Source of the DNA: Eublepharis macularius
Taxonomy: Eukaryota > Chordata > Lepidosauria > Squamata > Eublepharidae
Assembly (NCBI RefSeq): GCF_028583425.1
Contig: NC_072801.1
Coordinates: forward strand, 13,474,001 to 13,538,000
Reading direction: 5' to 3'
DNA: 64,000 nt
Shown here: piece after piece, positions 7,567-63,623 of the stretch
Layout of the letters: each line of letters starts with the position of its first letter
How positions within the stretch are numbered: position 1 is the first letter of the stretch
Program-made: the position numbers and the translations under genes
Notes under the pieces: model-generated
Told to the model about the DNA's origin: nothing
Databases searched by the model: none
The model's input: only the letters and a program-made list of their open reading frames with translations

Positions 7567-7713
7567 TGAGGAGAACGTTCGCTTGTAGCTCCGTGCTTAT
7601 TTGTGTCTTTGGATTGCCTTTTCGTGACTGACTTGGATCTGGATTTTGACTTCTCTTCTGCTTACTGATTTGGACGGACTGATCTTGGTAGTGTATTTGA
7701 CCCGGACTGTTTT

Positions 7714-9909
7714 TTGACTTCGCGTTTGTTTTTGCCCCTCGGAATGGCTTCTACGGCCCTGTTTAAGCACTGTGCCCAGTGCCGTGCTAAAATGGCTCAA
7801 ACGGATGGGCATAGCCTTTGCCTGCTTTGCCTGGGGGAGGGACATGTAGTCCCCACTTGCAAGATCTGCCAGGGCTTTACGCATAAAGCCAGGCAGGAGC
7901 GGTCCGCCCGCCTCAAGGCTTCGCTGTGGCAGCGGGTCTTGGACGCCCCTGGGCCCTCCGAGGCGGAGAAACCCGGAGCCGCGGAGAAGGCTGGCCGAAC
8001 CCCCACCCATGCTGGAAGCCGGTCTCGAGCGGGCTCTGTAGCCTCTTCCAAATCGGTGGCTACATCCCGCCCGGCGGACAAGCCGGCGTCGAGGGCAAGC
8101 TCGGTGGCGAGGTCTGCGAAGTCCCCGCACAAGTCGGCGTCGGTGAGGTCGGAACCGGGGAGGTCGGCTCCGAGGCCGGAACCGAGCGAGTCGGATCCGA
8201 TACGGTCAGCCCCGGCGTCGATCGAAGGGCCTGTGACAGTCCCGGGACCGGAGGCTGCACGGAAGGCGTCGACCAAGAGGACATCGGTTCCGAAAGCTTC
8301 CTCCGAATCGGTTCCGAAGAAGAAGGCTAAGAAGACCAAGCATCGCTCTCGGTCCCCTCGGCGCCGGTCTACAGAGGAGGTGGTCCTGGTGTCTCCACCC
8401 ACACCATCACCTCACCTGGACTCCCCTGACCGTCCCCTCCTCGAGGAAGAGATGCCGGATCCGGGGGCCTATGTGGTCCTGTCGAGTGAACGGCGTTCGC
8501 CAACACCGGAATCGAGCCCGGCTCCACGTCGTCGGATCCGAGGGACGACCAGGGATCCGTCGCCTGCACAGTCTGCCCATAGCCAACGGTGTTGGTCGGA
8601 GGGCAGTGTCGGATCCGAGCGAGTCGGATCCGAGCGGTCCGTGGCTGCGCGTCACCGACAGGCTACAGGTCTACCAGAGGCCTATCGGTGCCAGTGGAAA
8701 GGGGCTCCACCTGGCTTCAGGTCATCGGATCCGGGGCCGTCATCGCCTGGCCATCGTGAGTGGCTGCCGCCACCCTTCCCAGAGGGGGAACTGTCAGCTC
8801 CAGCCTCTGATGAGGATGACGAGGACGTAGGGTCCGGCTACCGCTCTGAGTCGCTCTCCGAGCCATCTCCGGACGACAATGTCGGCCCTTCCACCAGCTC
8901 TCCCTTCGAGGACCTGCGGATTTATGCAGACCAAATGGCTCGCATGTCCAAGGCCTTGGAGATTGACGTGTCTTCTGTGGTCCCGAAGACGAAGGACAAG
9001 TTGCTGTGCAGAATCTATGGGGAGAACCCGGCTACAGTAGGTTTTCCTATGTTGGAGGGCTTGGAGGAGATCATCGACAAGGTCTGGAAGTCACCATCTG
9101 ACCTGCCTGCCACGTCCAAACGCATCGAACAGATGTATAAGATCAAACAGGGGACGTGGCAGTCTCTCATCAAGCACCCTCCACCGTCATCCCTGATAGC
9201 CGAGGAGATTCAGCACAAGAGGTCGGGGTCCTCCTCCGTCCCACCGGATAAGGAGGGAAAGAAGATGGACGCACTGGGTAGACGTCAGTACTCAGTTGCT
9301 GCTTTAGCCCTCCGGATAGCCAACTATCAAACGATTATGGCGGGCTACCAGCTCTACCTATGGGAAAAGCTGGCGAACTATGTCACTGACCTCCCTGCTG
9401 ATAAGAAGGCGGTGGTGTCGTTGCTGCAGACGGAGGCAGTACGATTATCGAAGCAACAGATGAATGCCGGGAGTCATGCGGCTGACACGGCTGCTCGGGG
9501 TATGGCGTCAGCGGTGCTTCTGAGGAGGCACTCATGGTTGCGGTCGACCGCCCTCCCGCAGGAGGTGAAGGCCAAGATCGAACGTCTGCCCTTCGAGGGT
9601 GACTCCCTCTTCTCTACCACCACCGACGAGGCGCTTAAAAAGAAGAAGGAGGACCGGCAGACGGCACGCTCCCTGGGGGTCACTCCGGCAGACAGGTCCA
9701 CGTTCAAGCCTCGGTACTCGTCGAGGTATAATCCCTACCAGTACCGCAGCAGATATCAACCCCGTCCGTACTATCAGCAGTACCCTACCTCGCAGCGCCA
9801 GTATACCCCAGCGCAACACCAGGGCAGGAGGCGTAGGCCATTCAAGCCCCGCTCGTTTCAACCTCCGCCCCAGCAAAAAGATCCGCAAGGGGCTGGAAGG
9901 CAGTTCTGA
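7714..9909 (+). CDS. DIRS ORF1, Gag-like protein (731 aa)
   Basis: First long frame of the DIRS element. The N-terminal 20-52 region has a Cys/His-rich cluster (C20, C23, H33, C36, C39, H44, C49, C52), as in vertebrate DIRS Gag-like proteins. A long Ser/Pro/Arg-rich disordered region follows (about 90-380). Next comes a more structured part (about 400-600) and a Tyr/Gln/Arg-rich basic tail likely to bind nucleic acid. The alternative start at 7744 (MASTALF) is equally plausible. Domain function is inferred from position and composition. Confidence 0.82.
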   Translation: MTSRLFLPLGMASTALFKHCAQCRAKMAQTDGHSLCLLCLGEGHVVPTCKICQGFTHKARQERSARLKASLWQRVLDAPGPSEAEKPGAAEKAGRTPTHAGSRSRAGSVASSKSVATSRPADKPASRASSVARSAKSPHKSASVRSEPGRSAPRPEPSESDPIRSAPASIEGPVTVPGPEAARKASTKRTSVPKASSESVPKKKAKKTKHRSRSPRRRSTEEVVLVSPPTPSPHLDSPDRPLLEEEMPDPGAYVVLSSERRSPTPESSPAPRRRIRGTTRDPSPAQSAHSQRCWSEGSVGSERVGSERSVAARHRQATGLPEAYRCQWKGAPPGFRSSDPGPSSPGHREWLPPPFPEGELSAPASDEDDEDVGSGYRSESLSEPSPDDNVGPSTSSPFEDLRIYADQMARMSKALEIDVSSVVPKTKDKLLCRIYGENPATVGFPMLEGLEEIIDKVWKSPSDLPATSKRIEQMYKIKQGTWQSLIKHPPPSSLIAEEIQHKRSGSSSVPPDKEGKKMDALGRRQYSVAALALRIANYQTIMAGYQLYLWEKLANYVTDLPADKKAVVSLLQTEAVRLSKQQMNAGSHAADTAARGMASAVLLRRHSWLRSTALPQEVKAKIERLPFEGDSLFSTTTDEALKKKKEDRQTARSLGVTPADRSTFKPRYSSRYNPYQYRSRYQPRPYYQQYPTSQRQYTPAQHQGRRRRPFKPRSFQPPPQQKDPQGAGRQF

Positions 9910-9960
9910 AGACCCGGCCCTGCGGCAGCCCTGAACTTTTCGGACAGACTCAGTCCTTAC

Positions 9961-11802
9961 TTGTCTGAATGGGAGTCAATAACATCTGACTCATGGGTCT
10001 TAACGATTGTTGATAAGGGGTACGGGCTGGAATTCACTGAACTGCCGATGTGTACTTCACCGCTGAGTGCGGTGAATAATACCTTGGTTGAGCTGGAGGA
10101 TGAAATTAGGTCCCTCTTGGCTAAGGGTGCTGTGGAAGAGGTGCAATTTGTGGAGTCTGAGAAGGGTTTCTTTTCCCGGTTCTTCCTGGTCCCTAAGAAG
10201 GATGGGGGTCTACGTCCCATTTTGGATCTTAGGGGCCTAAATGCCTTTCTAAGGGTCACCAAGTTTAGGATGATCACACTGCCTGCTGTAATTGCCCTTT
10301 TGAAGAGGGGGGATTGGTTCGCTGTCCTGGATTTAAAGGACGCGTATTTCCACGTGGGGATCTTGGAGGAGCACAGGAGATTTCTGTGCTTTGTTTACAA
10401 GCAGCGGGTATTCCGTTACAAGGTTCTCCCCTTCGGCCTTTCCACAGCCCCACGTGTGTTTACTAAGTGCGTGGCTCCTGTGGTTTCCTTTCTTCGAGAG
10501 CGGGGCTGTACCATCTACCCCTATCTCGATGATTGGCTTATAACAGCGGGCTCGGAGGTTAAGCTGCTGCAAGATGTGGCATTGGTGCTAGACACTTGCG
10601 AACGCTTGGGCCTCCTGGTTAACTTTGAAAAATCTAAGCTGACGCCTAGCCGTGTTGTGCCTTATATTGGGGCAGTGTTCGACTCATTGGAGGCCAAGGC
10701 TTTATTGCCTCCGGAGCGGGCACGTTCCTTGAAGAGACTGGTGTCCTTGTTTAAACGAAATCGTTTTCAGCCAGTGCGCATGATTCAATGCTTGCTAGGG
10801 CATATGGCTGCTGCCACCCCGGTGGTCCCTTTTGCGAGGCTGCGGATGCGCCCGCTCCAGAATTGGTTTGTGAGGAGATACGATGCTCTACAGCATCCTC
10901 CGACTGCTAAATTCTCTGTTCCCAGAGCCGTTATATCCTCTCTTGACTGGTGGTTGTCGGATATTAATTTGTTTAAAGGGACCCCATTTGGTTTCCATCA
11001 TCCCGAGTTCTCCGTAACCACGGACGCCTCTCTGCAAGGGTGGGGGGCTTTCTGTGGGGAGCTATGTGTTCAGGATGTGTGGTCTGAGAGAGAAAGGGGT
11101 CTCCATATTAATGTGCTGGAACTGAGGGCTGTTCGTTTTGCACTTATGTCGTTCACAGCAATCTTGCAGAACCATCAGGTGCTGGTGCAGACGGACAACA
11201 CTACCGCTATGTATTACCTGAACCAACAGGGCGGCACGGTGTCCATGATCCTCTGCAGGGAGGCCACGCTCATTTGGGAATGGGCAATCAGGAATGGGGT
11301 GACGCTTCGCGCCATTCATGTAGCTGGGTCGGACAATGTGCAGGCGGACACTCTCAGCAGGGTGCACATGCTGAATCACGAGTGGGGGCTCAACGCAAAG
11401 TACGTTGGGCCGATCTTTCGGAAATGGGGTCGCCCGAGCATAGACGTGTTTGCGACATCGGCGAACACCAAGGCCGAGATCTTTTGTTCTCGGGCAGGAA
11501 GCGATCCCCTTTCTATTGGGGATGCCTTCCAATTTACTTGGGCCCCGGGACTACATTACATGTTTCCGCCTTTCCCTCTCATACCCAGAGTGCTGTGCAA
11601 GGTGGAGAGGGACAACACGGACTGCATCTTAGTGGCTCCGTTCTGGCCACGGCAGCTCTGGTTCCCGAAGCTGCTGGAAATGTCCGGCCGAGCTTACGTG
11701 GCCCTTCCGCCCCGGAGGGATCTCCTCCTACACGGGAAGCTCTTCCACCACGAGCCCAGGAAACTGCACCTGACCGCTTGGCGGATTCGGCCCCGTCCCT
11801 AG
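9961..11802 (+). CDS. DIRS ORF2, reverse transcriptase/RNase H (613 aa)
   Basis: The RT fingers/palm include FFLVPKKDGGLRPILDLRGL, the LDLKDAYFHV motif near residue 125 and the catalytic YLDD box at 188-191. RNase H follows, with TTDASLQGWGAF near residue 354 and QTDNTTAMYYLNQQGG. The C-terminal segment (RPSIDVFATS..., FPPFPLIPRVL, APFWPRQLWFPKL) is the conserved post-RNase H region characteristic of DIRS elements. ORF1 ends 51 bp upstream. It copies the element's RNA into a circular DNA intermediate, as known for the family. Confidence 0.93.
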   Translation: MSEWESITSDSWVLTIVDKGYGLEFTELPMCTSPLSAVNNTLVELEDEIRSLLAKGAVEEVQFVESEKGFFSRFFLVPKKDGGLRPILDLRGLNAFLRVTKFRMITLPAVIALLKRGDWFAVLDLKDAYFHVGILEEHRRFLCFVYKQRVFRYKVLPFGLSTAPRVFTKCVAPVVSFLRERGCTIYPYLDDWLITAGSEVKLLQDVALVLDTCERLGLLVNFEKSKLTPSRVVPYIGAVFDSLEAKALLPPERARSLKRLVSLFKRNRFQPVRMIQCLLGHMAAATPVVPFARLRMRPLQNWFVRRYDALQHPPTAKFSVPRAVISSLDWWLSDINLFKGTPFGFHHPEFSVTTDASLQGWGAFCGELCVQDVWSERERGLHINVLELRAVRFALMSFTAILQNHQVLVQTDNTTAMYYLNQQGGTVSMILCREATLIWEWAIRNGVTLRAIHVAGSDNVQADTLSRVHMLNHEWGLNAKYVGPIFRKWGRPSIDVFATSANTKAEIFCSRAGSDPLSIGDAFQFTWAPGLHYMFPPFPLIPRVLCKVERDNTDCILVAPFWPRQLWFPKLLEMSGRAYVALPPRRDLLLHGKLFHHEPRKLHLTAWRIRPRP

Positions 11803-12818
11803 GCTTCTCTGAGCCAGTAGAGAAGGTCCTACTGAACGCTAGGAAGCCCTCCACACGGCGTGCCTACAAGGCGAAGTGGAGTAGGTTTGAGGCTTGGGCC
11901 GCCTCTAGGAAGGTAGCGCCTCTGGATAGCCCCTTGGGGATGGTCTTGGATTATCTTTGCGAGCTGAAGGACCAGGGCCTTAGTGTAGCGTCTCTGAAAG
12001 TGCACCTTGCGGCCATCTCTGCGTTCCATGATCGGGTGGATGGCTGCACGGTTTTCTCTCACCAGAAGTCCCGCCAGTTTTTGAAGGGGATGCTTAACCT
12101 TTACCCGCCTGTGTCACCCCCTGTGCCCCAGTGGTCTCTCTCCCTGGTCCTGGCTAGGTTGATGTTGCCCCCTTTTGAGCCTTTGGCTACGTGCCCTCTG
12201 GACTTGCTCTCCTACAAGGTGGCATTCCTCGTGGCGATCACTTCCGCCAGACGAGTCAGCGAACTGGCTGCTCTTAGGGCAGACCCCCCGTTCCTTCGCT
12301 TTCATGCGAATAAGGTGGTCTTGCGACCGTGTCTTTCATTCCTGCCCAAGGTGGTGTCAACCTTCCACCTTTCACAAGAGATTTCTCTGCCTGTATTTTT
12401 CCCTGATGCTTCTACTAAAGGGGAAAAGGCCCTCCACAGTTTGGATCTGCAGAGGGCTTTGGCTTTTTATTTGGAGAGGACAAGGGTGTTCAGGAACAGT
12501 CCCTACCTTTTTGTGTGTTTTGGGGCGAAGGACAAGGGCCGCAGGGCGTCTGCACAGACGGTGTCCCGTTGGATTGTGACAGCCATTGTGAAGGCCTACG
12601 CCACGGCTAAGGTGGACTGTCCTTTGGGTGTCAGGGCTCACTCCACACGATCCCAGGCGGCATCTTCGGCACTGCTCAAGGGTATACCTTTAGCTAATAT
12701 TTGCAGGGCTGCGACTTGGTCGTCCGCCGATACCTTTGTACGGCATTACGCTGTGGATGTAAATGCCAATGAAGATGTAGCTGTTGCTAGGGCCGTCCTC
12801 CATTCCTTGTTTCCCTAG
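11274..12818 (+). CDS. DIRS ORF3, tyrosine recombinase (514 aa frame)
   Basis: It overlaps ORF2 in another frame. The recognisable protein starts near 11800 (KPSTRRAYKAKWSRFEAWA). The N-terminal core-binding domain contains VASLKVHLAAISAFHD. The catalytic domain has the first Arg in TSARRVSELAALR (about residue 326), the H-x-x-R box in AHSTRSQAA (about 455) and the Tyr in VRHYAVDV (about 492). It would insert the circular DNA without target duplication. DIRS elements commonly express this frame through the overlap with ORF2. Confidence 0.92.
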   Translation: MGMGNQEWGDASRHSCSWVGQCAGGHSQQGAHAESRVGAQRKVRWADLSEMGSPEHRRVCDIGEHQGRDLLFSGRKRSPFYWGCLPIYLGPGTTLHVSAFPSHTQSAVQGGEGQHGLHLSGSVLATAALVPEAAGNVRPSLRGPSAPEGSPPTREALPPRAQETAPDRLADSAPSLGFSEPVEKVLLNARKPSTRRAYKAKWSRFEAWAASRKVAPLDSPLGMVLDYLCELKDQGLSVASLKVHLAAISAFHDRVDGCTVFSHQKSRQFLKGMLNLYPPVSPPVPQWSLSLVLARLMLPPFEPLATCPLDLLSYKVAFLVAITSARRVSELAALRADPPFLRFHANKVVLRPCLSFLPKVVSTFHLSQEISLPVFFPDASTKGEKALHSLDLQRALAFYLERTRVFRNSPYLFVCFGAKDKGRRASAQTVSRWIVTAIVKAYATAKVDCPLGVRAHSTRSQAASSALLKGIPLANICRAATWSSADTFVRHYAVDVNANEDVAVARAVLHSLFP

Positions 12819-14499: not shown

Positions 14500-15385
14500 T
14501 CCTCCATCACTTATCCCAGCCAGATGAAGTCAGGGGAGGCAGGCATGGCAACCTCCTCTGCACCTGATCCCGGCCAAGTGAAGGGGAGAGCACTGCCACC
14601 TGCTCTGCTCCTGATCCTGGCTGGGTGAATGGGGGACGGGCATCACCACCTGCTCCACACCTGATCCCGGCTGGGTGAAGGGGGTGGGCATTGCCACCTG
14701 CTCCATTCCTGATCCTGGTCGGGTGAAGGAGCAGGTCCTGCTGTCTGCCCCATACGTAATCCTGGCTGGGTGAAGTGGGGGTGGGCATTGCCACCTGCAT
14801 CCTCCATTATCCCAGCTGGATGAAGGTGGAGGGCGGGCATTGTCACCTGCTTTGCTCCTGATCCCAGCTGGGTGAATGTGGGGGGTGGGCATTGCCACCT
14901 TCTTTGCTCCTGATCCCAGCTGGGTGAAGGCGGGGGTCGAGCATTGCCACCTGCTCCACTCCTGATCCCAGCTGGATGAAGGTGGGGGGCAGGCATTGCC
15001 CCCTCTCTGCTCCTGATCCCAGCTGAGTGAAGGCAGGGGGCGGGCATTGCCACCTTCTCCACTCCTGATCCCAGCTGGGTGAAGACAAGGGCTGGTCATT
15101 GCCACCTGCTTTACTCCTTATCCCAGCTGGGTGAAGGCGGAGGACAGGCATTGCCACCTGCTCCACTCCTGATCCCAGCTGGGTGAAGGCAGGGGTTGGG
15201 CATTGCCACCTGCTCCCCTCCTGATCCCAGCTGGGTGAATGCAGGGGGGTGGGCATTGCCACTTGCTTCCCTCCTGATCCCAGCTGGTTGAAGGGCAGGC
15301 GGGCATTGCCACCTGCTCCACTCCTGATCCAGCTGGCTGAAGGTGGGGGGCAGGCATTACCGCCTGCTCCATGTCTGATATCGCC
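14500..15385. repeat. GC-rich minisatellite, unit ~54 bp
   Basis: About 16 diverged tandem units of the type GGCATTGCCACCTGCTCC / ACTCCTGATCCCAGCTGGGTG / AAGGCGGGGG. Units vary by substitution and a few bp in length. Because the unit is near a multiple of three, long stop-free frames appear on the minus strand, but they are an artefact of the repeat. Confidence 0.92.
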
Positions 15386-18650: not shown

Positions 18651-18654
18651 AGTA

Positions 18655-18768
18655 AGGAGTCCAGTAGCACCTTTAAGACTAACCAACTTTATTGTAGCAT
18701 AAGCTTTCGAGAACCACAGCTCGCTTTGTCAGATGCATCTGACAGACTAACACGGCGAACTCCTCCAG
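18655..18768 (-). mobile_element. Penelope-like terminal foldback, short
   Basis: GAGTCCAGTAGCACC...AGCATAAGCTTTCGAGAACC...TCAGATGCATCTGAC, followed directly by the element's outer tail AGACTAACACGGCGAACTCC. The right arm is reduced to a few bases. It belongs to the same family as the copies at 41.2, 44.9, 56.2, 60.7 and 63.4 kb. Confidence 0.75.
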
Positions 18769-23533: not shown

Positions 23534-24884
23534 CTTTCTATGCCTCTGTCTGTTGCTTTTCTTCCTTCTCCCATTCCCTCCCTCTTTACTCTGAATTTCC
23601 TCCTGCTCATATTTTTGAGGTTTTCCCCCCCCCCTCTGATTTTCTGCTCGCTATTAAATTAATTGGCTGCACCTGCCAGCAAGAACCATAAAATTGGAGA
23701 AGTCGCCATGGCCGGCTGAGATGGATATGATTTGGATATGCCCAGCCTCCAGATTGTTTAAATTAGGTAAGCCTTTGTCATGGGTTCTCACACCAGAGTG
23801 CTGCACCAAAGATGTTCTTCACAATCAGACTTTTTTTTTTGGGTCAAATTGTGGAGTTTAGTAGCTTCTTACAGGGCTCTGGACCAAAGGACTGCTTCTT
23901 AAGGGTTCTTCAAAGGCCCAGCTCAGACATAACATGAAATCTTACTTTATATTAAACAACTATTTATCAGCATGCAAATGATCATTCAAATTCAAGTTTG
24001 CCTTATCAAATGTTAGTTTCATAGTCTTTGTTCTGTAGCTGGGGAAGCAGTGCTGGGACTCAAGCAGGGCTGCCAATCATCCACTTGCAGCCAGAAAGAG
24101 GCTGGGGAGTGGAGGCTGAAAAAATGGCATCACACAATGTTACTTCTGGGCAACTACCCATAAGTGGCATCTCTGTATTACTTGATGCTCTAGCAATTTC
24201 CCCAGTATCTACAGTAAAAATCAAAGAGTTTGGGTAAATTCTTAGAGAGTCACATGACACAGTGACATCACTTCTGGATACTCACTTGGAAGTGATGGTT
24301 GGATGACACTGCTTCCTGTCCCTCCATTTTTGCTCCTGCTGCTCGTTCAAGCAGCAGCAGGGGCCAGAGCCTGGCAGCAGGAGATTGCCTGCCAAAGTAG
24401 GAAATGTGGCATCTCTAGGTAGAAGCTAGGTGTTTGCATTCATATAACATACAAAACTATCATTAAGACTATGGTTAGTAAACTAACTTCAAGCCATGGT
24501 TTCAAATCCTGGTTTGACCGCTGTTCGTGAATCGGCCTGTGTTCAGACACTCATACTAACTATAGCGAGTTTAAACAGACCATGGTTTTGGCGGTATCAG
24601 AACTGAGGCCTTCCCTGATACCACCTCAGCATCAGTTCCAGAGCTGGATCTATGTAATAGCCAAACCAACCAAGAGCCTTGTGGCTCCTTCAAGACTGTC
24701 AGTTGCATTGCAGTAGAAGCTTTGGGGAGCCAGCGCCCAAACTGTTACATGCATGAAATGTTTCCCACAGTGGGCAGAAGTCTATCTATTCGAGGGTAGA
24801 AACAGAAGAAAGGTGGGTGAGGGAGAGTTATCAAACAAAAAGAAGCCAGAAGGCCTAGCATTCCAAGATATGTTGCAAAGCAAA
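23534..24884. other. No gene or recognised repeat
   Basis: Heterogeneous DNA. 24450-24600 has CCATGGTTT words in both orientations and may be a decayed palindromic element. No coding exon was found. Confidence 0.4.
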
Positions 24885-41045: not shown

Positions 41046-41218
41046 TGCAAGTGATGCCCAGCTAGCATGTTTCCCTACATTCAGCTTTGCTAAAAAGAAC
41101 GGGACCATGTGCAACCTGATATTCATTTCAATGGGGTCCATTATTACGATGAATTATTTAAAGAGCATCATCAGCCTTCCATATCTGAATCCTGTCTTTC
41201 CTCCAAGGAAAATCAAAA

Positions 41219-41882
41219 AGAGCCCAGTAGCACCTTTAAGACTAACCAATTTTATTGTAGCATAAGCTTTCGAGAATCACGTTCTCTTCGTCAGATGCAT
41301 GGAGGGCAGAAGGAAACTGGCCAAATATAGAGGAGGAGAGGGGGGGAAGGGGGGAAGGAGGAGAGGGGGGATGTAAAGAACTCCTTTGATATGGAGATGC
41401 AGACAGCTCCTTTTGGTGTGGGGATCAGTTTGCTTGTGTAAAGGTTCAAAGGAGTTTTCCGTGTTAGTCTGTAGTAGCAAAATCAAAAAGAGTTCAGCAG
41501 CACTGCAGCACAAGCCCTCGATAACCACAGTCCTCCCCGCCAGATGCATCTGACAAAGAGAACCGTGGTCCTCGAAAGCCCACGCCAGGTGCCACTGGAC
41601 TCCCCCTGACCCCGCCTCTGTAAAGGAAATCAGTTACCTGTGATAATGAGATAACCATTCATAGTCCCTATTCAGTCCCAACTTGACAAGAGTCAAATTT
41701 GCATATGAATTCCAATTCAGCAGCTTCCCGTTGGATTTTGTTTTTGAAAGGTTTCTGTTGAACTACAGCGACCTTTAGGTCTTTGGTGGAATGTCCTGGT
41801 AGATTGAAGTGTTCTCCCACTGGTTTCTGGACGTTGCCATTTCTAATGTCAGATTTGTGTCCATTTATTCTTTTGCGTAGAG
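41219..41882 (-). mobile_element. Penelope-like element, 3' part
   Basis: The minus strand contains the C-terminal end of a Penelope-type protein and then the 3' region ending in the terminal segment GCATCTGACGAAGAGAAC..GGTGCTACTGGGCTC (41219-41300). 41446-41625 holds another small inverted terminal unit. It is truncated at ~41882, where a SINE follows. It is the only copy here with protein sequence and so assigns the foldback units to this class. Confidence 0.75.
41668..41880 (-). pseudogene. Penelope GIY-YIG endonuclease C-terminus, fragment
   Basis: Minus-strand frame NGNVQKPVGEHFNLPGHSTK followed by DLKVAVVQQKPF, then a Glu in REAAELEFICKF and a stop at 41668. The 'PVGEHFNxPGH' segment and downstream Glu are the conserved end of the GIY-YIG domain of Penelope-like elements. 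The RT domain is absent from the window. Confidence 0.78.
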
Positions 41883-41884
41883 GG

Positions 41885-44794: not shown

Positions 44795-45300
44795 AAAAAA
44801 TATTTATAGTGCACCTTTCTCACTGAGACTCAAGGTGGATCACAGTGTAAATCAATACAATCAACAGCTGGGACATTCCCTAAACAATGCAATGGGACAG
44901 TTGCAATAGGGTGCAAATTTGCAGAGTTCAAAACAAGCAAAATAAGTAGCACCTTTAAGACTAACCAACGTTATTGTAGCATAAGCTTTCAAGAACCATA
45001 ACTCTCTTCGTCAGATACATCGTCAGCTTCTGACAAAGAGAGCTGTGGTTCTCAAAAGCTGACGATGCATCTGTCAAAGAGAGCTGTGGTTCTCGAAAGC
45101 TGACGATGCATCTGACGAAGAGAGCTGTGGTTCTCGAAAGCTTATGCTACAATAAAGTCGGCTAGTCTTAAAGGTGCTACTGGACTCTTTACTATTTTGC
45201 AACTACAGGCTAACACGGCTAACTCCTCTGGATGGAAAACAAGCAGAAATCCAATACAGATTTGAAACAAGAGCATATGAAATTCTAAACCCGACATATC
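44795..45300 (+). repeat. Dispersed repeat, family E, interrupted
   Basis: 44795-44939 and 45246-45300 together match the order seen at 22676 (AGTGCACCTTTCTCACTGAG, CAATACAATCAACAGCTGGG, AAAACAAGCAGAAATCC). The gap is a Penelope-like foldback flanked by the duplication AAAACAAGCA. Confidence 0.75.
44940..45235. mobile_element. Penelope-like terminal foldback with target duplication
   Basis: Left arm AGTAGCACCTTTAAGACTAAC..TCGTCAGATACATCG in reverse sense, then about three ~41 bp units, then the right arm in forward sense to GGTGCTACTGGACTC and the outer tail AACTACAGGCTAACACGGC. Flanked by a perfect AAAACAAGCA (44930-44939, 45236-45245). The tail is on the right side only. Confidence 0.82.
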
Positions 45301-45950: not shown

Positions 45951-46984
45951 AGAAGTGTGCTGTGGCTCACAAAAGCTGCTACCCTACCACAAATTTCATC
46001 ATTCTTATAGGTGCTACTGGGCTCTTGCTCTTTTCTACTGCAAAAACAGAGTAACAGGGCTACCCATCTTGATCTAATTGTCAGATGTCAGAGTAGTCAG
46101 CAGGGGACGGCTGATGCAAGCCGTTGGAGGGGGGGAACTGGGAAGACACTCTGCACGTTATCAGAAACACTGATTATCCCTAAGGCTGCTGACAAGCGAA
46201 TGCTGGATTAAATGACTCCGCATCTACTTCTGTATTAAGTGTCTGCTGTTTTGAGTTCCAAGGAGGGCGAGGACTTTTTTTTTAAAGCACTACATAAATA
46301 AAACAAATAAAGTGTATACGCACGAACTAAACGTTGCTTACGCCTGCAAACACATCCCAGCCAGGCGCCCACGCAGTTGCCCTACTTGGCAGCAGTTTGG
46401 GCCTTTCTGCGCGATGGAACCAGGTGTGGGGAGGGCCGGTTTCCGCACGGAGCTAAAAAGCTGTCGCACCGTCGGAGCAGGGGGAACAAACCAAGTATCC
46501 GGGATAGATAAAGAGGGTATTTTTCATGCATTTATTTCTTAAGGGGCAGGGTGTAGCGGCTTACAGTGTGTGCCAATAAGTGCTGGGCCGTGGAGCCCCA
46601 TTTGCATGCTGCAGATCTGGAAACTTGACATCCTGATGCGGGGGGGGGGGGGGGGGGGAGACGTGCATTTATTTGCACACGCTTAGAAGCTATTGTTAGC
46701 CCTTCGCTTGCCTTCTCCCCGCCTCCTATTTAAACTGAAGCAGAAATCTGGTCTCTTTCTTGCGCGTGGATTACTGCAATGCAAACAAGAGTCGTCTGAG
46801 CTGCCTTGTCTCAGATCGAGCCAGGATTTGATCACGTTCCTGCTGCCTTTCCTCCAAGAAACTCTGGGCTGTGAACGTGGTTCTCCTCTCCCATTTTATT
46901 CTTTTTTTAAAGTGACTAGGAAGAGGTCACTTCTGCTCTGTTGGGGCTTTAACCTGTGTCTTCCAGTCCTGGCTGAGCAGTGCT
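45951..46984. other. No gene supported; CpG-containing block and poly-G tract
   Basis: 46310-46560 has more CpG than its surroundings and no repeat hallmark. It could belong to a promoter region, but no transcript can be tied to it. A G18-type homopolymer lies at 46640-46659. Confidence 0.35.
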
Positions 46985-56118: not shown

Positions 56119-56149
56119 TCAAGAACCAATGTGGTGTAGTGTACAGAAT

Positions 56150-56922
56150 CAGAGGAGTGAGCCATGTTGCAAAATAGTAGAGTCCAGTAGCATCTTTAAG
56201 ACTAACCAACTTTATTGTGGCATAAGCTTTCGAGAACCTCAGCTCTCTTCGTCAGATGCATCGTCAGCTTTTGAGAACCACAGCTCTCTTCATCAGATGC
56301 ATCGTCAGCTTTTGAGAACCACAGCTCTCTTTATCAGATGCATCGTCAGCTTTCGAGAACCACAGCTCTTTGTCAGATGCATCGTCAGCTTTTGAGAACC
56401 ATAGCTCTCTTCATCAGATGCATCGTCAGCTTTTGAGAACCACAGCTCTCTTCGTCAGATGCATCGTCAGCTTTCGAGAACCACAGCTCTCTTCATCAGA
56501 GAGCATTGTCAGTTTTCGAGAACCATATCTCTCTTCGTCAGATGCACTGTCAGCTTTCGAGAACTTCAGCTCTCTTCATCAGATGCATTGTCAGCTTTCG
56601 AGAACCACAGCTCTCTTCGTCAGATGCATTGTCAGCTTTCGAGAACCACTGCTCTCTTTGTCAGATGCATCGTCAGCTTTCAAGAACCACTGCTGTCTTC
56701 GTCAGATGCATCGTCAGCTTTTGAGAACTTCAGCTTTCTTCATCAGATGCATTGTCAGCTTTCGAGAACCACAGCTCTCTTCATCAGATGCATCCATGCA
56801 TCTGACGAAAACAGCTGTGATTCTCAAAAGCTGATGATGCATCTGACAAAGAGAGCTGCGGTTCTCGAAATCTTATGCTACAATAAAGTTGGTCTTAAAG
56901 GTGCTACTGGGCTTTTTACTAA
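56150..56922. mobile_element. Penelope-like terminal foldback expanded into a minisatellite
   Basis: Flanked by TGTACAGAAT (56140-56149, 56923-56932). The left outer tail (CAGAGGAGTGAGCCATGTTG) and terminal segment in reverse sense come first, then ~13 tandem 41 bp units, then one to two units and the terminal segment in forward sense (ATGCTACAATAAAGTTGG, GGTGCTACTGGGC). The tail is on the left side only. Confidence 0.85.
56240..56790. repeat. 41 bp minisatellite derived from Penelope-like terminus
   Basis: About 13 units of CGTCAGATGCATCGTCAGCT / TTTGAGAACCACAGCTCTCTT. The orientation flips at 56790-56805 (GATGCATCCATGCATCTGAC). The unit equals part of the element's terminal segment. Confidence 0.93.
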
Positions 56923-57256
56923 TGTACAGAATGTTATCCTTATACTAGGAAGTCCCGGGTTCAGATCCCTACTCACCCTCGAAGTTCACTGGGTGATCTC
57001 GGTCCAATCATGGCTTCTTACTCTAACCTCCCTCCACCTCCAGGGCTATTGTGAAGCTTAAATGGGGAGGGGAGACAGCGTTAAGAGCTCCTTAAAGGGC
57101 AGGATTTAAAAATACTGAAAAATGGTTTTCTCGAACCACTCGTGCCCTGGAGTCCAAAACGTAAGAGCTCCAGCATCACTTTGCGGCAGACTAAGCTGCT
57201 TGTCCTCTCGATGGATGTTCTTGGCGGCACCTTCCCATCGCTTTGTGATGCAGAAA

Positions 57257-57383: not shown

Positions 57384-60300
57384 CTGCAGCCAAAAAACAC
57401 GCCCCTGTGTGTCAACCCAGTGTATTGGTGGACCCGACAATACTGCCAGGGGCCCAAGACTGACATTCACCAGCCTCCAGGCCAATGGAAAGGGAGCCTG
57501 GGACTAGAGCAGAGGGAGAGGCCGGTGAGCAGAGGCACCAGAAACCCGTCTGGGGGCAGCCTTGGGGCTTCTCTCAGCAATGCAGTGCTGGGGCTGAGGG
57601 GCTTACAGTGGATTTTGAGACGATACAGCAGGCACTAGCACGGGATTGGCTCTCCAGGGCTCCCTGATTTGCAGGAAGCTTCTAGACTGTACTAGTTGCC
57701 TCTCTGTCAGTGGCTCTCTCCAACCAGATGAGTTTCCAGATAGCCACATTAGACCAAAGCAAAATAAAAGGGGTCGGGGGGAGGCGCTCATGGCTTCTGT
57801 TTGCGGATTCTACTTTAACCAGTGGCCTAACCTAGGCTCAGGGCCAAGCTAGAAGTGACGAATGACACTTGAACGGCAAGTGAACAGATTCACATGTATT
57901 CCTCCCTGTTCACTTGCGCTCTACTTATGCTCCACTCGGTCATGCAAGTGGAGCGCAAGTGAACGGGGAGGAATACATGTGAGGGCAAAACTACAAGTGA
58001 CGAATGACACTTGAACAGCAAGTGGATTGAGTGGAGGGCAAGTGAACAGGGAGAAATGCACTTGCCGTTCAAGTGTCATTCGTCACTTGTAGCTTGGCCC
58101 TAAGTCTGTTCACTTGCTGTTCAAGTGTCATTCGTCACTTCTAGCTTGGTCCTCAATTTAAACATCACGCAGCCGGATAGCAGATGTTGAGCATGTGGCA
58201 GTGCACACACCCAGTATAGGGTTCCAGGTCTCTGTACCCTCCCAGCGGGAGGCAGGGGACCTGGGACTTGCCTGTAGTAGTCCCCTCTCCACACTCCTGG
58301 TGGGGCATGATGACGTCACTTCCGGGAAGCGTCGTCATCGCGCCGATTGTGGATGTGCTCCTGCATTTTGTGCAGGGCTAATTCTGGCTCGTTTGGGGCC
58401 AAGATTGGCCCCAGCGAAGTGCAGGAGCACACCCGTGCCCAGCGTGATGACATCACTTCAGGAAGTGACGTCATCGCGCCCCACGGGGAGCATGTCTCGT
58501 GCATGCTTTCCCGGGTTGCCTGCCAGTGGTGGGCGGTTGCTGGGGGGGGTTTGCCACTTCCCACCGATCACCAGCGCTTGGCAGGCAACCGGTAAGCCAA
58601 ACCCAGCATCTCATTTAAAAAATTCTCTGATGCTACACATACTATGTTAGTAAGCTAGCGCAATGCCCGCCTGAGCTTTGGATCTCTGCTGTGCTAACTC
58701 TGCACATGGAACAGCCAAGAGCCCACTTTGAACAAGACATGGGACGTACATGGAGGCACTCATAAGTTCTTGCCTGTTAGTTTCGTTTTTAAATTGGTTC
58801 CTCAGAGTACCAAGAAGGAGGGAATTGGCGCCTGGCCTGTTTCAGGCACCTAACAGAGCCTGTTCCCCCAAGCAGCCAGAGGGAAGGCCAGCAGGGGGGA
58901 GGGGGTGTCAGGTCTTTGCATGGGGTGGCCAGAGCATGAGCAAGCTAGGGAAGAGTGCCCTCACCTCACAAGGTGCTTATCCACGTACTCGTGCAGTTCG
59001 GCAACCTGCTCTTCTGCTACCGTTGCCCGTGCTAGCAGCTGGCACCTCTCCTTCTCCAGATCTTCCTGCGCAAACACAAGCCGAGAAACAGGAAGGAGGG
59101 GAGATGATTGACCCAGTATGAATCTAGGCCACCTTGTAAATGTGTACTATGCCTCGTAGGAAAGATGCACGCATGCTTCAAACGGTATAAACCATTTCCT
59201 GCTCCATAATTGAGGGTTTGAATGAGAAAATGTGTGGGTTGACCTTTGTCCAGTAAGCTACTGCGGACTGAGCATGCTCAGACCTCAGCATAGTACGGGA
59301 GAGGGTTTCAACACTTGAGCCTTGCAATTGGCTGGGAGTACGGCACCTCTAGATTGGAATGGCCTGGAATAAATATTAGGAGCCTGGCCTTCTGGTTTTT
59401 GCCTGGTTAACAGAGCAAGGGCCTCTGCATCTTGGAATCTAGTACACCCTCCAGCCGAGATTCTGGCGTGGCCATCAGCATGTTCATGTATTCTTAAGGT
59501 GATGTTTGAAATGTGCATTCTGTATCACTGACATGTCTGTATGTATTTCGTTCTTCTGTTTCTGCAGTTTGCCCTTATGTACCCCTAAATCTGAATAAAT
59601 TTAGACGCAGCAACATCGAATATTTTGACGTTCATCTATGAGACACGCATAGTTAAAAAAAATAGATACATGCAAAACAAGTTTCACAGCTGTGCTGTTG
59701 GTCTGAGCATTTTACCTGTACAGTGTGTGTGAACTCTCGAAGCTGTTTCCTGAGATCTGCCCAGCCCTCCTCATTCAGCATGCTAGGAAGAAAAAATCTG
59801 AGTGAAGTGAAACCGGGCTAGGCACACTTAGGATACAGGCTTAGTTCCGAAAACAAAGGTGTCTTCCACACAGGGATGGGATTTTGTGGTTGCAGCTGCA
59901 TATAAAGCAACGGGGCTTCAACTTGGCAAGTTTCACAGCTGTTTCCCTGTGTCAGTTCCCCAGAAATATCTTGTCAGTTGGAGGGATAACTAACCTACTT
60001 TAGTTATTCCATCTAATGCACCAGGAGAGAGTTCTTTTACTCAGGCCACGTTGGTCCAGTGAGAAATGGAGGGGAGGTTTCCTGGAATATCAACTCTGGC
60101 CTTAGGAAAAAAGAAGATAAAAACCCTTTCTGCGTTTCTGGACCGCAGTGTCTCGAACTGTAGGGACAGGTGATTTAATGGTAGAGGCATGTGGGGCGGC
60201 CGTGGGAAAGTTCTTCTTTGTCCATCTGGGGACTGCTTAAGCAAAATATAGGTCACGGTTGAGGTTTGCGGGATTCTGGCTGTATAGAACGGATGGTATG

Positions 60301-63040
60301 AATTGAGGAATGCATTGTGCTTTAGGGTATGTGGGACATGGATGATGCGTTGAGGCTGCATGAGCGCCCTCTAGGGGGCACATGAATCATTAAGTCATGG
60401 AGAAAGGGAGCTGCATCTTGAGAATTACTAGAAGGAGGAAACGCAACACACGTTTCCCCCTCCACGTCTACGTGTGTTATCCTGCTCTTCCTCCAAGGAT
60501 CTTGGGGTGCTGTACATTGTACTCTCCCTCGTCCATTTTATCTTCACAGCGACCCTGTGGTGGCAGCTTAGGCTGGGAAGGTGTGTGAGGCCCATGGTCA
60601 CCCTGTGAACTTTGTAGCAATGCAGGGATTCGAATCCCAGGCTTCACAGATGCTACTCTGACACTCTGACCACTACCATGGTCATAGATCCAGAGGAGTC
60701 AGCTGTGTTAGTCTGTAGTTGCAAACTAGTAAAGAGTCCAATAGCACCTTTAAGACTAACCAACTTTATTGTAGCATAAGCTTTCGAGAACCACAGCTCG
60801 CTTTGTCAGATGCATCGTCAGATGCATCTGACAAAGAGAGCTGTGGTTCTTGAAAGCTTATGCTGCAATAAAGTTGCATCTGACAAAGAGAGCTGTGGTT
60901 CTTGAAAGCTTATGCTACAATAAAGTTGCATCTGACGAAGAGAGCTGTGGTTCTCAAAAGCTTATGCTACAATAAAGTTGCATCTGACGAAGAGACCTGT
61001 GGTTCTTGAAAGCTTATGCTACAATAAAGTTGCATCTGACGAAGAGAGCTGTGGTTCTCGAAAGCTTATGCTACAACAGTTGGTTTGTCTTAAAGGTGCT
61101 ACTGGACTCTATTATTTTACTGGACTCTTCACTATCTGACCGCTACATAACACTCACTTCCAATATCAACAAGTACTCACTGACGAGGTGAAGTCCTTCC
61201 GCTATTTTCACTGAACTTGACCTGCAAGGACAGAAATAAAGGCCTGATCTATTCGGTCAAAGACCCTCTTGTATGGAGATATAAAATGGCAACCCAGTTA
61301 AAGCTGCTCCTCACTCTTACAAGTTTGCAAGGGTTATTGGTAGCCGTGTTGGTCCATAGCAAAATTCCAATGGTCATGCAATTTTTTTTTGTCACGACCC
61401 ACCAAAATGGGTTGTGACAAGCTTGGGTCATTGGCAAGCTTTCCAGCTCTCTTTGCTGAAAAGTTTGCCATCTTACTACATTTTGGTGGCCCAGATACCC
61501 TGGTGAAAAATACCACCATGAGCGGGAAAACAATCAAATTAATTGTTTTGGGGGAGATACATGTCCTTCCCTGGTGCAAAAGGGATGGTAGCTTTGTGAT
61601 TACATTCAGTGGAAAGCATTAACCAAAGACAACCTCAAAACCTGTTCTGGAATGTCTGTACGTAGTTTTAACCAAGATAGGGTTACCTTTTCTGGATGCC
61701 CTTCTCTGCCATGAACACTAGAGAAATCCAACAGGTGACAATTCCCCCAGTGCAAAAATACAATGGTGAGGGTACAGCAGGGCCGGATCTAGGGTTGCCG
61801 GCGCCTGGAGCAACCCTAGTCCGACCTCATGCGTGCTGTGTGCGTGCGTGCTCCCGGTGCCGCATGATGATGTCATTTTGGTGACATCACGCCAGGTGGC
61901 GGAGGCAGCGTGCGGGGCTGGGAAGCCGCCCACGCCATTCGCCTCCCCGCAGGCAAATGGCGTGGGCGGCCTCACAGCCCCTCACACTGCCTTTCGCCTG
62001 CCCCGCAGGACAGGGGGCGGCCGGCTGCCCCCTCTCCTGTGAGGCAGGTGAATGGCGTGCATGGCTGCGCTGCCCTTTGCCTGCCCTACAGGACGGGGTA
62101 TGCGGCAAGCTGGCTGTCCCCTGTCCCGCGGGGCAGGCGAAAGGCAGCGTGGGGGGCTGCAAGGCTGCCCACGCTGCCGTCTGCGCGCTCTGGCAGCTGC
62201 TCCCGGCGCCCCCTCCCTGGTGGCGCCGGGGGCAGACTACCCCCCTGCCCCCCCTCGATCCGGCCCTGGGGTACGGTCACCATTTCTGTATTCAAAACAT
62301 TCATGGCGGACTGGGGTCTATCAATACCGATTAGCCACGATGGTTAAATGGAACTTGCCTCTTCAGGGGCTGAACGCCAGATTCTTGGGCAGACAAGAAG
62401 GGAGGCCCCTGTGCCCTGCTTGGGGTATTCCTTGAAGCACCGAGGTGGCCACTGGTGGAAACAGGACACTGAACTGAAGAGACCCTTGGTCTGACCCAAC
62501 AGAGTGTTTCTGAGGTTGAATCGGGGCCTGTAATCAACTTTTAAGGGCCACAGGATCTATGTTGGAGAAAGGGTGGCAACGGGAGTGGGTGGGCTGGATT
62601 AGCCTCTGAAGAAACAGCAAAGATGTCTTAGCTTAGATGTCTTTGCTATGCCTTGATGCCAATGCCAGGTAGCCAAGCTCAGATTTCCAAGTCCATTTAT
62701 TCAACTGCCTCCTGGATAGCACTGTCCTGAAGGGTCCTGGAGCCCCTCCTCCCCATATTGTTTTCTACTGGGGGATCATAAATCCTCTTGGCAACATCCT
62801 ACACCTTCCCAAGGGACCCGCTATCCTGGGAGCCCAAAGGCGGGAGATCTGTCCACCGTCACCACCTTCATCTGCAATTCGTGTAGCTCAGCCTCCAGCC
62901 TGGCTTTGTCTTCCCGCAGCCGGTTCAGCTCTTGAGAGGTGCTGTTCAGCAACTCAGCATCCGTGATGGCAAGGTGGTGTTCTGGAGGGCCAAGGTCCGT
63001 TTCGTTACTGCCCAGCATCCGGACCTGTTCACGCTGCATC
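57257..63040 (-). CDS. CCDC78: CCDC78, four 3' coding exons (5' part not seen)
   Basis: Minus-strand exons in order are 63040-62866, then 59782-59716, 59065-58965 and 57383-57257 (stop). Joined, the last three read LNEEGWADLRKQLREFTHTV, QEDLEKERCQLLARATVAEE, QVAELHEYVDKHLVRYKQEI, VRLRKLLG and end at NLSNDM. This closely follows the human CCDC78 C-terminus (WAQIHQKLRDF...EYVDQHLGRYKQEILRLRKL). All joints keep frame. CCDC78 is a coiled-coil protein of the deuterosome, needed for centriole amplification in multiciliated cells, and human variants are linked to a congenital myopathy. The tail-to-tail position with ANTKMT matches human. Exons expected between 59783 and 62865 were not identified, and the gene's start lies outside the window. 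Confidence 0.88.
57384..57839. other. CCDC78 intron, no repeat recognised
   Basis: No supported element. Confidence 0.4.
57840..58153. mobile_element. Family D palindromic elements, one nested in another
   Basis: The outer copy AGGGCCAAGCTAGAAGTGACG...GTCACTTCTAGCTTGGTCCT encloses an inner complete copy 57982-58101 (AGGGCAAAACTACAAGTG...CACTTGTAGCTTGGCCCT). In a CCDC78 intron. Confidence 0.82.
58218..58607. repeat. GC-rich TIR-like element (relative of 37080)
   Basis: AGGGTTCCAGGTCTCTGTACC, CCTCCCAGCGGGAGGCAGGGG, with internal inverted GATGACGTCACTTCCGGGAAG and CACTTCAGGAAGTGACGTC words. The right end is not clear. Confidence 0.55.
58608..58964. other. CCDC78 intron, no repeat recognised
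   Basis: No supported feature. Confidence 0.4.
58965..59065 (-). CDS. CCDC78: CCDC78 penultimate exon
   Basis: 101 bp, 33 codons plus AG: EDLEKERCQLLARATVAEEQ, VAELHEYVDKHLV. Heptad pattern of a coiled coil. Acceptor TTTGCGCAG, donor GAG|GTGAGG. The split codon joins exactly to the last exon. Confidence 0.92.
59066..59715. other. CCDC78 intron, no repeat recognised
   Basis: No supported feature. Confidence 0.4.
59716..59782 (-). CDS. CCDC78: CCDC78 exon WADLRKQLREF
   Basis: 67 bp: one base, then MLNEEGWADLRKQLREFTHTVQ. Acceptor TTTTCTTCCTAG, donor CAG|GTAAAA. Matches human SWAQIHQKLRDFS in place and phase. Confidence 0.9.
59783..60454. other. CCDC78 intron; expected exons not found
   Basis: Searched on the minus strand for further coiled-coil exons with AG/GT borders; none is convincing. 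Confidence 0.4.
60455..60679 (-). repeat. tRNA-derived SINE
   Basis: The minus strand has GGTAGTGGTCAGAGTGTCAG head, GGGATTCGAATCCC-like B box region, GGTGACCATGGGCC and GCTGTGAAGATAAAATGGACG. Confidence 0.82.
60680..61134. mobile_element. Penelope-like terminal foldback with forward tandem units
   Basis: Outer tail GATCCAGAGGAGTCAGCTGTG and terminal segment in reverse sense to TCAGATGCATCGTCAGATGC, then about five ~57 bp forward units ending GCTTATGCTACAATAAAGTTG, then the forward terminal segment to GGTGCTACTGGACTC. Flanks TCTGACCACTAC and TCTGACCGCTAC. The tail is on the left only. Confidence 0.82.
61149..61769. other. CCDC78 intron, unclassified
   Basis: A hairpin GTCACGACCC..GGGTTGTGAC lies near 61392. 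TTGGTAGCCGTGTTGGTCCA at 61337 resembles an outer tail of Penelope-like elements. No exon supported. Confidence 0.4.
61778..62268. mobile_element. GC-rich hAT miniature element, family B
   Basis: CAGGGCCGGATCTAGGGTTGC...CTCGATCCGGCCCTG with 8 bp flanks GGGTACAG and GGGTACGG (7 of 8). The interior repeats CTTTCGCCTGCCCCGCAGGA-type units. In a CCDC78 intron. Confidence 0.9.
62360..62525 (+). repeat. SINE-like 3' fragment
   Basis: GACCCTTGGTCTGACCCAAC followed by AGAGTGTTTCTGAGGTTGA resembles the 3' part of a CORE/tRNA SINE ('GACCCTTGGTCTGATCCAGCAGG'). Weak. Confidence 0.45.
62866..63040 (-). CDS. CCDC78: Upstream coiled-coil exon, probably CCDC78
   Basis: MQREQVRMLGSNETDLG, LAITDAELLNSTSQELNRLR and EDKARLEAELHELQMK. 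Codon use and coiled-coil heptads look real. The acceptor is GGTTGACAG. The donor AAG|GTGGTG is weak and the exon end could be a few codons later. Assignment to CCDC78 is inferred from strand and position, since I do not recall a clear human counterpart of this segment. Confidence 0.65.
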
Positions 63041-63246: not shown

Positions 63247-63405
63247 AAACATTCCCCTAGCCGGAACTACACTTTGATGGGCTGATGGTTAAAGACCATG
63301 TGCGTTCCAGAGTTTCCTATATACCACAAAAATAACCCCAATTTGTGATAAATTTACCCACTAAGCACCTCTGCATCCTTTTAAAAAACGTTTCTAGTCT
63401 TTTAG

Positions 63406-63610
63406 AAAAGAGTCCAGTAGCACCTTTAAGACTAACCAACTTTAGCATAAGCTTTTGAGAACCCCAGCTCTCTTCGTCAGATGCATCTCATCTGACGAAG
63501 AGAGCTGTGGTTCTCCAAAGCTTATGCTACAGTAAAGTTGGTTAGTCTTAAAGGTGTTACTGGACTCTTCTATTTGGCTACTGCAGACTAACACGGCTAA
63601 CTCCTCTGGA
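63406..63610. mobile_element. Penelope-like terminal foldback, minimal unit
   Basis: The simplest copy: terminal segment in reverse sense (63410-63488), directly joined to the forward segment (63489-63567) and the outer tail CAGACTAACACGGCTAACTC. Flanked by a perfect 13 bp duplication TCTAGTCTTTTAG (63393-63405, 63611-63623). Confidence 0.88.
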
Positions 63611-63623
63611 TCTAGTCTTTTAG

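What the first reader, a model, noticed from the sequence alone, without database searches (positions are those of the whole stretch)
63406..63610. Penelope-like termini insert as head-to-head foldback units
Copies at 18655, 44940, 56150, 60680 and 63406 share one architecture. The element's terminal segment appears in reverse sense and then forward sense, meeting at a GATGCATC-type palindrome, with the outer tail (CAGACTAACACGGCTAACTCC) on one side only. Four have 10-14 bp flanking duplications (TCTAGTCTTTTAG and AAAACAAGCA perfect). The duplications show that each whole foldback entered as one unit. This suggests snap-back self-priming of the cDNA at the palindrome, or twin priming, as the normal outcome for this family and not an accident. 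The mechanism is inference.
Basis: partly seen in the sequence, partly recalled or inferred. Interest (0 to 1): 0.75.

Follow-up and report, generated by a model that had tools for sequence, protein, structure and literature searches.

The report
Penelope element head-to-head foldback insertions
In this animal genome short pieces of a Penelope-like jumping gene often sit as two mirror-image copies joined head to head, probably because the element starts copying itself from both broken DNA ends at once, and one such mirror-image piece in the jumping gene itself bears what look like inherited marks of RNA editing.

Summary
The window has five leader-type foldbacks (A, D, F, G, H), and of 39 copies fetched with a single-arm query 29 are head-to-head. 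Foldbacks carry target duplications (29 of 47 at p<=0.01); single-orientation copies mostly do not (1 of 10). The architecture is a published hallmark of Penelope-like elements (PMC3846280), so it is not new in itself.

Snap-back at the palindrome explains the data poorly: the tailless arm stops near one inner site (34 of 37 parsed), none of 44 assessable foldbacks has two tails, centres differ between copies, single copies end at the same ATGCAT, and two longer copies (L067, L090) are head-to-head without a palindromic join. I prefer two-sided target priming from two start sites, then joining of the cDNA ends. Against it, arms within a locus are more alike than between loci.

Unexpected: copy C belongs to a Penelope element (GIY-YIG domain) with many near-identical copies, whose 3'UTR holds a foldback with strand-specific A>G changes (25 of 31), an ADAR-like context and apparently stepwise accumulation.

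The parts
63404..63610 (+). Copy H: simple foldback, tailless reverse arm + forward arm with tail; flanked by TCTAGTCTTTTAG (63393-63405 and 63611-63623)
44940..45235 (+). Copy D: tailless reverse arm, 41-bp forward units (array 45029-45142), forward arm with tail; flanked by AAAACAAGCA (44930-44939 and 45236-45245)
56149..56922 (-). Copy F: arm with damaged tail on the left, 13.9 x 41-bp units (56225-56794), centre near 56795, tailless right arm; flanked by TGTACAGAAT (56140-56149 and 56923-56932)
60677..61134 (-). Copy G: tail arm on the left, 4.9 x 52-bp units (60823-61076), tailless right arm; flanked by TCTGACC[A/G]CTAC (60665-60676 and 61135-61146)
18652..18768 (+). Copy A: tailless reverse arm, perfect GTCAGATGCATCTGAC centre, forward arm nearly all missing, tail present; no target duplication found
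41207..41883 (-). Copy C: 5'-truncated copy of an autonomous-type Penelope-like element: end of the ORF (stop codon 41636-41634), 3'UTR with A>G-changed hairpin, terminal arm without tail
   Evidence: GIY-YIG match made on the same region of copy L089
41447..41617 (-). Foldback hairpin in the 3'UTR of that element with strand-specific A>G changes; 39 further copies at 98-99% identity among the 40 scored of 2334 candidates
41207..41298 (-). Terminal arm of copy C (ATGCATCTGACG...GATTTT), no A>G excess (1 A>G among 4 substitutions)
45108..45147 (+). Hammerhead-like core in an intact arm: GCAT CTGACGA A GAGAGCTGTGGTTCTC GAAA GCTT ATGC; the GCAT half of the central ATGCAT would be stem I
   Evidence: no Rfam hammerhead match
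24651..24753 (-). Copy B: diverged single-orientation relative
45951..46071 (+). Copy E: diverged single-orientation relative with a different tail

Best explanation
The foldbacks are products of two-sided target-primed reverse transcription by a Penelope-like element. Inferred steps: (1) the GIY-YIG endonuclease cuts both strands of the target with a stagger of roughly 9-18 nt; (2) both 3' ends prime reverse transcription at the 'tail' region of element RNA, one at the distal start site (arm with tail) and one at the proximal start site about 30 nt earlier (arm without tail); (3) for leader-type copies each cDNA runs about 90-130 nt to where the template ends, at (G)ATGCATCTGACG, which is also stem I of a hammerhead-like motif; (4) the two cDNA 3' ends, self-complementary at ATGCAT, anneal or are otherwise joined, and filling in gives a head-to-head foldback with a target duplication. 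If only one end is primed, a single-orientation copy without duplication results. Shown here: the anatomy, the clustered ends, at most one tail per foldback, the link of duplications with foldbacks, the variable centres. Inferred: the double priming itself, and that both templates usually come from the same source locus.
For: Head-to-head form in 29 of 39 loci from a single-arm query: 27 by parser plus L050 and L067 by eye. Duplications at p<=0.01 in 14 of 27 and 15 of 20 foldbacks against 1 of 10 singles and 0 of 2 tandems (29 of 47 against 1 of 10, Fisher p=0.004; after moving L050, which has one, and L067, which has none, 30 of 49 against 1 of 8, p=0.018). The tailless arm ends 9-21 nt from the start of GGACTC in 34 of 37 parsed foldbacks; none of 47 shows a tail on both arms, 44 of them assessable. 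Single copies start at arm positions 1-6, i.e. at ATGCAT, in 8 of 8. Centres vary: 14 of 55 strict single ATGCAT, the rest mutated, abutting, overlapping, filled or truncated forms. By eye, L090 joins a 3'-end cDNA that stops near the foot of the 3'UTR hairpin to a longer cDNA with 2 nt or less of homology, and L067 joins two cDNAs beyond the palindrome. In 15 of 36 simple foldbacks the arms differ at one or more of three marker sites, L017 at two, which allows different templates. PMC11167929 (main text parts 1-3 of 4 read): the anole Poseidon protein cleaves and extends both strands, starts reverse transcription at two adjacent internal sites, and the 'tail' is the stretch between them.
Against: Arms of one locus are more alike than arms of different loci (0.945 against 0.927, 0 of 5000 permutations; 36 simple foldbacks, 35 scored), and 21 of 36 have the same marker letters in both arms. 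Two independent templates would not predict this unless both come from one source; I did not separate the two query sets in that test. Independent choice of start sites should give some foldbacks with two tails; none of 44 has them (both queries contained one tailed arm, so foldbacks with no tail at all could not be found). L045 has a reverse arm of only about 9 nt, which needs priming near the RNA 5' end. 18 of 47 foldbacks gave no duplication at p<=0.01 (9 of these at p=0.052; in three, L066, L074 and L085, the array reaches the edge of the fetched stretch). The loci were the best-scoring hits (40 scored of 2261 and of 3526 candidates), not a random sample.
Confidence: 0.6

Rival explanations
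1. Snap-back self-priming: one cDNA folds back at the ATGCAT palindrome and copies itself, making the second arm.
For: Within-locus arms are more alike than between loci; 21 of 36 have the same marker letters in both arms. Palindrome at many centres. Self-priming was proposed for rotifer Penelope elements from the same kind of junction, though on an antisense template (PMC3846280, Discussion read).
Against: A self-copied arm should run to the end of the first arm, tail included; 0 of 44 assessable do. Many centres have no loop or two abutting ATGCAT copies. L067 and L090 are head-to-head without a palindrome. Single copies end at ATGCAT too, so the palindrome does not define foldbacks. In 15 of 36 the arms differ at a marker site, though later mutation can do that.
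Confidence: 0.2
2. Inherited foldback: a foldback master locus is transcribed and each copy is an ordinary one-sided insertion of a hairpin RNA, like a SINE.
For: The element's 3'UTR hairpin is inherited as a foldback by the copies examined. Within-locus likeness.
Against: Centres and unit arrays differ between copies; a copied master would keep one centre. The tailless arm ends near one inner site next to the duplication.
Confidence: 0.12
3. L1-type twin priming on a single RNA, with the second primer annealing internally.
For: By eye, L091 has an inversion within the ORF of this general type; L045 has a very short reverse arm and a duplication TTTGAGACT.
Against: In the usual foldback both arms are the same terminal segment, not neighbouring parts of one RNA.
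Confidence: 0.06
4. Later events: a second copy inserting into the first, or inversion by recombination.
For: Tandem unit arrays show that later expansion may happen.
Against: Duplications flank the whole unit and the geometry repeats in dozens of loci.
Confidence: 0.02

Closest known systems
Penelope retrotransposons of the rotifer Adineta vaga, Pen2a_Av and others (PMC3846280; passages and Discussion read)
   Same: Inverted pLTR head-to-head with a direct pLTR, 8-10 bp duplications, optional 31-bp tail at one of the inverted pLTRs, inverted pLTR 37 bp shorter, palindrome at the junction
   Different: Here most fetched copies are pLTR-only units, about 200 bp when simple, with varied centres and some 41- or 52-bp arrays; the authors favour self-priming on antisense RNA
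Poseidon of Anolis carolinensis, PAc (PMC11167929; main text parts 1-3 of 4 read)
   Same: Penelope-type element of a lizard with a tail, two internal reverse-transcription start sites and a hammerhead motif; the protein extends both target strands
   Different: The text I read does not discuss foldback genomic copies; whether the present element is a close relative was not tested
Minimal type I hammerheads of Penelope pLTRs (PMC7761336; passages read)
   Same: Core with little or no helix III, often in tandem
   Different: The present motif has an extra A after CTGACGA and no Rfam match at E<=10; self-cleavage untested
Massive A-to-I editing of Penelope transcripts in lizard (PMC5625713; passages read)
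   Same: Penelope RNA is a major hyper-editing target in a lizard (over 40K sites)
   Different: That is RNA against DNA; here the changes are in the DNA of the element and shared by its copies

Membership tests
Endonuclease-containing Penelope-like elements | GIY-YIG endonuclease at the end of the ORF | tested here: met
   Pfam GIY-YIG 25.5 bits, cutoff 22.6, on the 203-aa end of the ORF of copy L089
Endonuclease-containing Penelope-like elements | Telomerase-like reverse transcriptase in the same ORF | not tested
   Only the last part of the ORF was fetched and searched
Endonuclease-containing Penelope-like elements | Direct and inverted pLTRs, one with a tail | tested here: met
   L090
Endonuclease-containing Penelope-like elements | Short target duplications | tested here: met
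   (29 of 47 foldbacks)
Hammerhead ribozyme (type I, minimal) | Conserved core and three helices, self-cleavage | tested here: inconclusive
   Core motif with stem I GCAT/ATGC (3-4 bp) in 8 of the 12 arms of the window's young copies, some with point changes, not found by the scan in A, G's tail arm and C's two inner arms; extra A; helix III 2 bp at most; no Rfam match; cleavage not testable here
Foldback or MITE-like DNA transposon | Two symmetrical terminal inverted repeats ending the element | tested here: not met
   One end lacks the tail in all 44 assessable foldbacks
L1-type twin priming product | Inverted and direct parts are different stretches of one RNA (recalled) | tested here: not met
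   Both arms are the same terminal segment
ADAR hyper-edited RNA, as source of the 3'UTR hairpin | A>G on one strand, confined to the duplex | tested here: met
   25 of 43 A in the duplex, 1 of 30 outside, 0 of 42 T>C
ADAR hyper-edited RNA, as source of the 3'UTR hairpin | Preference for 5' neighbour A or U over C or G (recalled) | tested here: met
   18 of 20 against 7 of 23, p=1.3e-4
ADAR hyper-edited RNA, as source of the 3'UTR hairpin | Inosine in the RNA | not testable with these tools
   No RNA data held

The most novel reading that the evidence does not exclude
Penelope-like elements normally integrate by priming from both cut ends, and the foldback is the completed product. The hairpin RNAs that follow become ADAR substrates, and an edited hairpin was reverse-transcribed back, fixed in the 3'UTR of the autonomous element and edited again in later generations, so that RNA editing wrote heritable, accumulating changes into a successful retrotransposon lineage.
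Probability: 0.45. Interest if true: 0.8.

Novelty: new variant of a known kind. Interest (0 to 1): 0.64.

Why it matters
How Penelope elements complete insertion is not settled in the papers read. The contrast seen here (foldbacks with duplications, single copies mostly without, one tailed and one tailless end) turns a known oddity into a testable two-sided model that fits published biochemistry. The A>G-changed 3'UTR hairpin would be a case in which RNA editing entered the germ line through reverse transcription and was carried to high copy number.

Tried and rejected
Rfam scan for hammerheads: no match; mostly sub-threshold microRNA-type hits, several of them on hairpins. Viral and GTDB collections: 0 hits. 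First nhmmer iterations with re-built models gave many reversed alignments and were not used; only iteration 0 was. The window-only arm comparison (eight arms of four loci) was too weak to decide anything (18 of 105 pairings as good). 'Two independent random templates' was my first reading; speaks against it, so I now assume one source locus for most copies, although 15 of 36 differ at a marker site. Search for hyper-editing in other foldbacks: none among 36, at most one sense-strand A>G per locus (sense 9, antisense 32; the latter is probably inflated by markers of the query). Search for an unedited second A-run in the same 3'UTR context: 0 matches at up to 1 mismatch. Rows dropped: the outer end of 10 of 47 foldbacks could not be parsed, and three (L066, L074, L085) reach the edge of the fetched stretch; only simple two-arm foldbacks (36 of 47) were used, and one of these gave no score. 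Searches (core-arm query, 40 scored of 1261; ORF-end query, 40 scored of 1793) were answered, but their loci were not fetched.

Full report
What is there. The window belongs to a 2.24-Gb, 72-contig assembly. I take it for a squamate reptile from recalled repeat sequences; no call names it. The repeated unit is the terminal segment (pLTR arm) of a Penelope-like element: ATGCATCTGACGAAGAGAGCTGTGGTTCTCGAAAGCTTATGC...GGACTCTTTACTATTTTGC, followed on one side by a tail ...CAGACTAACACGGCTAACTCCTCTGGATC. A search of the window with this arm finds eight loci. A, D, F, G and H are leader-type foldbacks, C is a 5'-truncated copy of an autonomous-type element, and B and E are diverged single-orientation relatives. 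D, F and H have perfect 10-, 10- and 13-bp duplications; G has 12 bp with one mismatch.

Genome-wide test. A query with one arm plus tail, blind to what lies upstream, scored 40 of 2261 candidates; the 39 other than copy D were fetched. The parser foldback, 10 single and 2 tandem. Two of the 'single' ones are head-to-head on inspection: L050, whose reverse arm stops at the GCAT next to the predicted hammerhead cut, and L067. That makes 29 of 39 head-to-head, 8 single, 2 tandem. A second set of 20, fetched from the 39 other hits of a foldback query, is foldback by construction. Duplications against a null of 1500 mismatched pairs of loci: 14 of 27 and 15 of 20 foldbacks at p<=0.01, with 6 and 3 more at p=0.052; 1 of 10 single; 0 of 2 tandem. 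With L050 (duplication TATTTCAAAG) and L067 (none) moved: 30 of 49 against 1 of 8, p=0.018. A sample of 20 stretches of 10 kb, 19 at round coordinates and one next to the window, held three high-scoring young copies besides several diverged matches: L040 foldback with an imperfect duplication, L045 with a reverse arm of about 9 nt and duplication TTTGAGACT, L043 single.

Ends and centres. In 34 of 37 foldbacks whose outer end could be parsed the tailless arm stops 9-21 nt after the start of GGACTC, well before the tail. None of 47 shows a tail on both arms; in three of these the array runs to the edge of the fetched stretch, so 44 are assessable. All 8 single copies begin at arm positions 1-6, i.e. 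at ATGCAT, and their upstream sequences show no shared stretch. So ATGCAT is where these cDNAs normally end, foldback or not. Centres: strict single ATGCAT in 14 of 55, about 24 with point changes by eye; the others are abutting (ATGCATGATGCAT), partly overlapping (ATGCATGCAT), filled (ATGCATCGTCATGCAT), truncated or otherwise changed. This variety argues for separate joining events. The longer copies L067 and L090 carry both arms past ATGCAT into the 3'UTR and are joined at unrelated points with little homology (by eye; the outer end of L090 was not fetched).

Mechanism. The published anole Poseidon protein cuts and extends both target strands and starts at two adjacent internal sites that bound the tail (PMC11167929). 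Put beside the asymmetry seen here, the simplest reading is that one target end primes at the distal site and the other at the proximal site, and that the two cDNAs meet head to head. The self-complementary ATGCAT would help but is not needed. ATGCAT also supplies stem I of a hammerhead-like core found in 8 of the 12 arms of the window's young copies, which may be why it is kept; this core has an extra A and no Rfam match, so activity is unproven. Against a free choice of templates, arms of one locus are more alike than arms of different loci. At three marker sites the two arms agree in 21 of 36 loci and differ in 15, L017 at two sites. I therefore suppose that both templates usually come from one source. 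A self-copying step cannot be excluded for part of the copies.

The A>G-changed hairpin. In copy C the inner foldback (41447-41617) differs from the arm family by 25 A>G among 31 substitutions when read on one strand. 25 of 43 A in the duplex are changed, 1 of 30 outside it, and 0 of 42 T are T>C. Changed A follow A or U in 18 of 20 cases and C or G in 7 of 23 (p=1.3e-4), the recalled preference of ADAR enzymes. 39 other copies among the 40 scored are 98-99% identical. Flanks of five of them show the end of an ORF, then this hairpin, about 150 bp of 3'UTR and a terminal arm; the ORF end of L089 matches GIY-YIG. So the hairpin is part of the autonomous-type element. A degenerate pattern finds 313 matches, control 0. 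Of the 100 listed, 76 are the major form, 13 belong to a minority form with fewer G (AAGC...), and 11 are other variants close to the major form. Copies of the minority form (L093-L097) have a full-length forward arm; L095 has 25 A>G among 30 substitutions, and the majority of these five differs from the major form by 9 A>G out of 15. I infer, without dating, that the minority form is the older. No form with an unchanged second A-run was found in this context. ADAR editing of the hairpin RNA followed by reverse transcription, probably in more than one stage, explains this best. Selection for G.U pairs alone should have used C>T as well, and only 2 of the 31 changes are C>T. No such excess was seen in 36 other foldbacks.

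What is known. Massive A-to-I editing of Penelope RNA in lizard is reported (PMC5625713, passages), and clusters of edits in genomic traces were sought before, with retrotransposon examples of the G-to-A kind in the passages I saw (PMC2873906). I found no statement of two-sided priming as the cause of Penelope foldbacks nor of an A>G-edited hairpin fixed in a retroelement; apart from the papers named, I saw only the listings of those searches. The held library lacks most subscription papers, and supplements were not readable, so this is weak evidence of absence.

Noticed in passing
41447-41617 (-), and L088-L097: 3'UTR hairpin of a Penelope-like element with strand-specific A>G changes, ADAR-like context and a less-changed minority form; 313 matches to a degenerate pattern
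   Followed up: yes
7669-12818 (+): DIRS1-like element (family name recalled) with long open frames: RVT_1 and Phage_int_SAM_1 above their cutoffs, RNase H-like and Phage_integrase below theirs; the first frame matches Pfam LAP2alpha
   Followed up: partly
45029-45142, 56225-56877, 60823-61076: 41-bp and 52-bp tandem arrays whose unit holds the hammerhead-like core and begins near ATGCAT; the 52-bp unit joins AAAGT to TGCATCTG
   Followed up: partly
L050, 430-520: Reverse arm ends exactly at TTGTAGCAT, where a hammerhead-cleaved RNA would begin, and is joined to GCATCTGACG: possible trace of ribozyme cleavage in vivo
   Followed up: no
L091: Element copy with an inversion inside the ORF (GGGGCAGAGCTG joined to TATCTACCC), of the twin-priming type
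   Followed up: no
14583-15371: 52-bp tandem array (15.5 copies, also scored with 104- and 259-bp periods), unrelated to the finding
   Followed up: no
57889-57983: Long hairpin that gives sub-threshold microRNA-type matches on both strands
   Followed up: no
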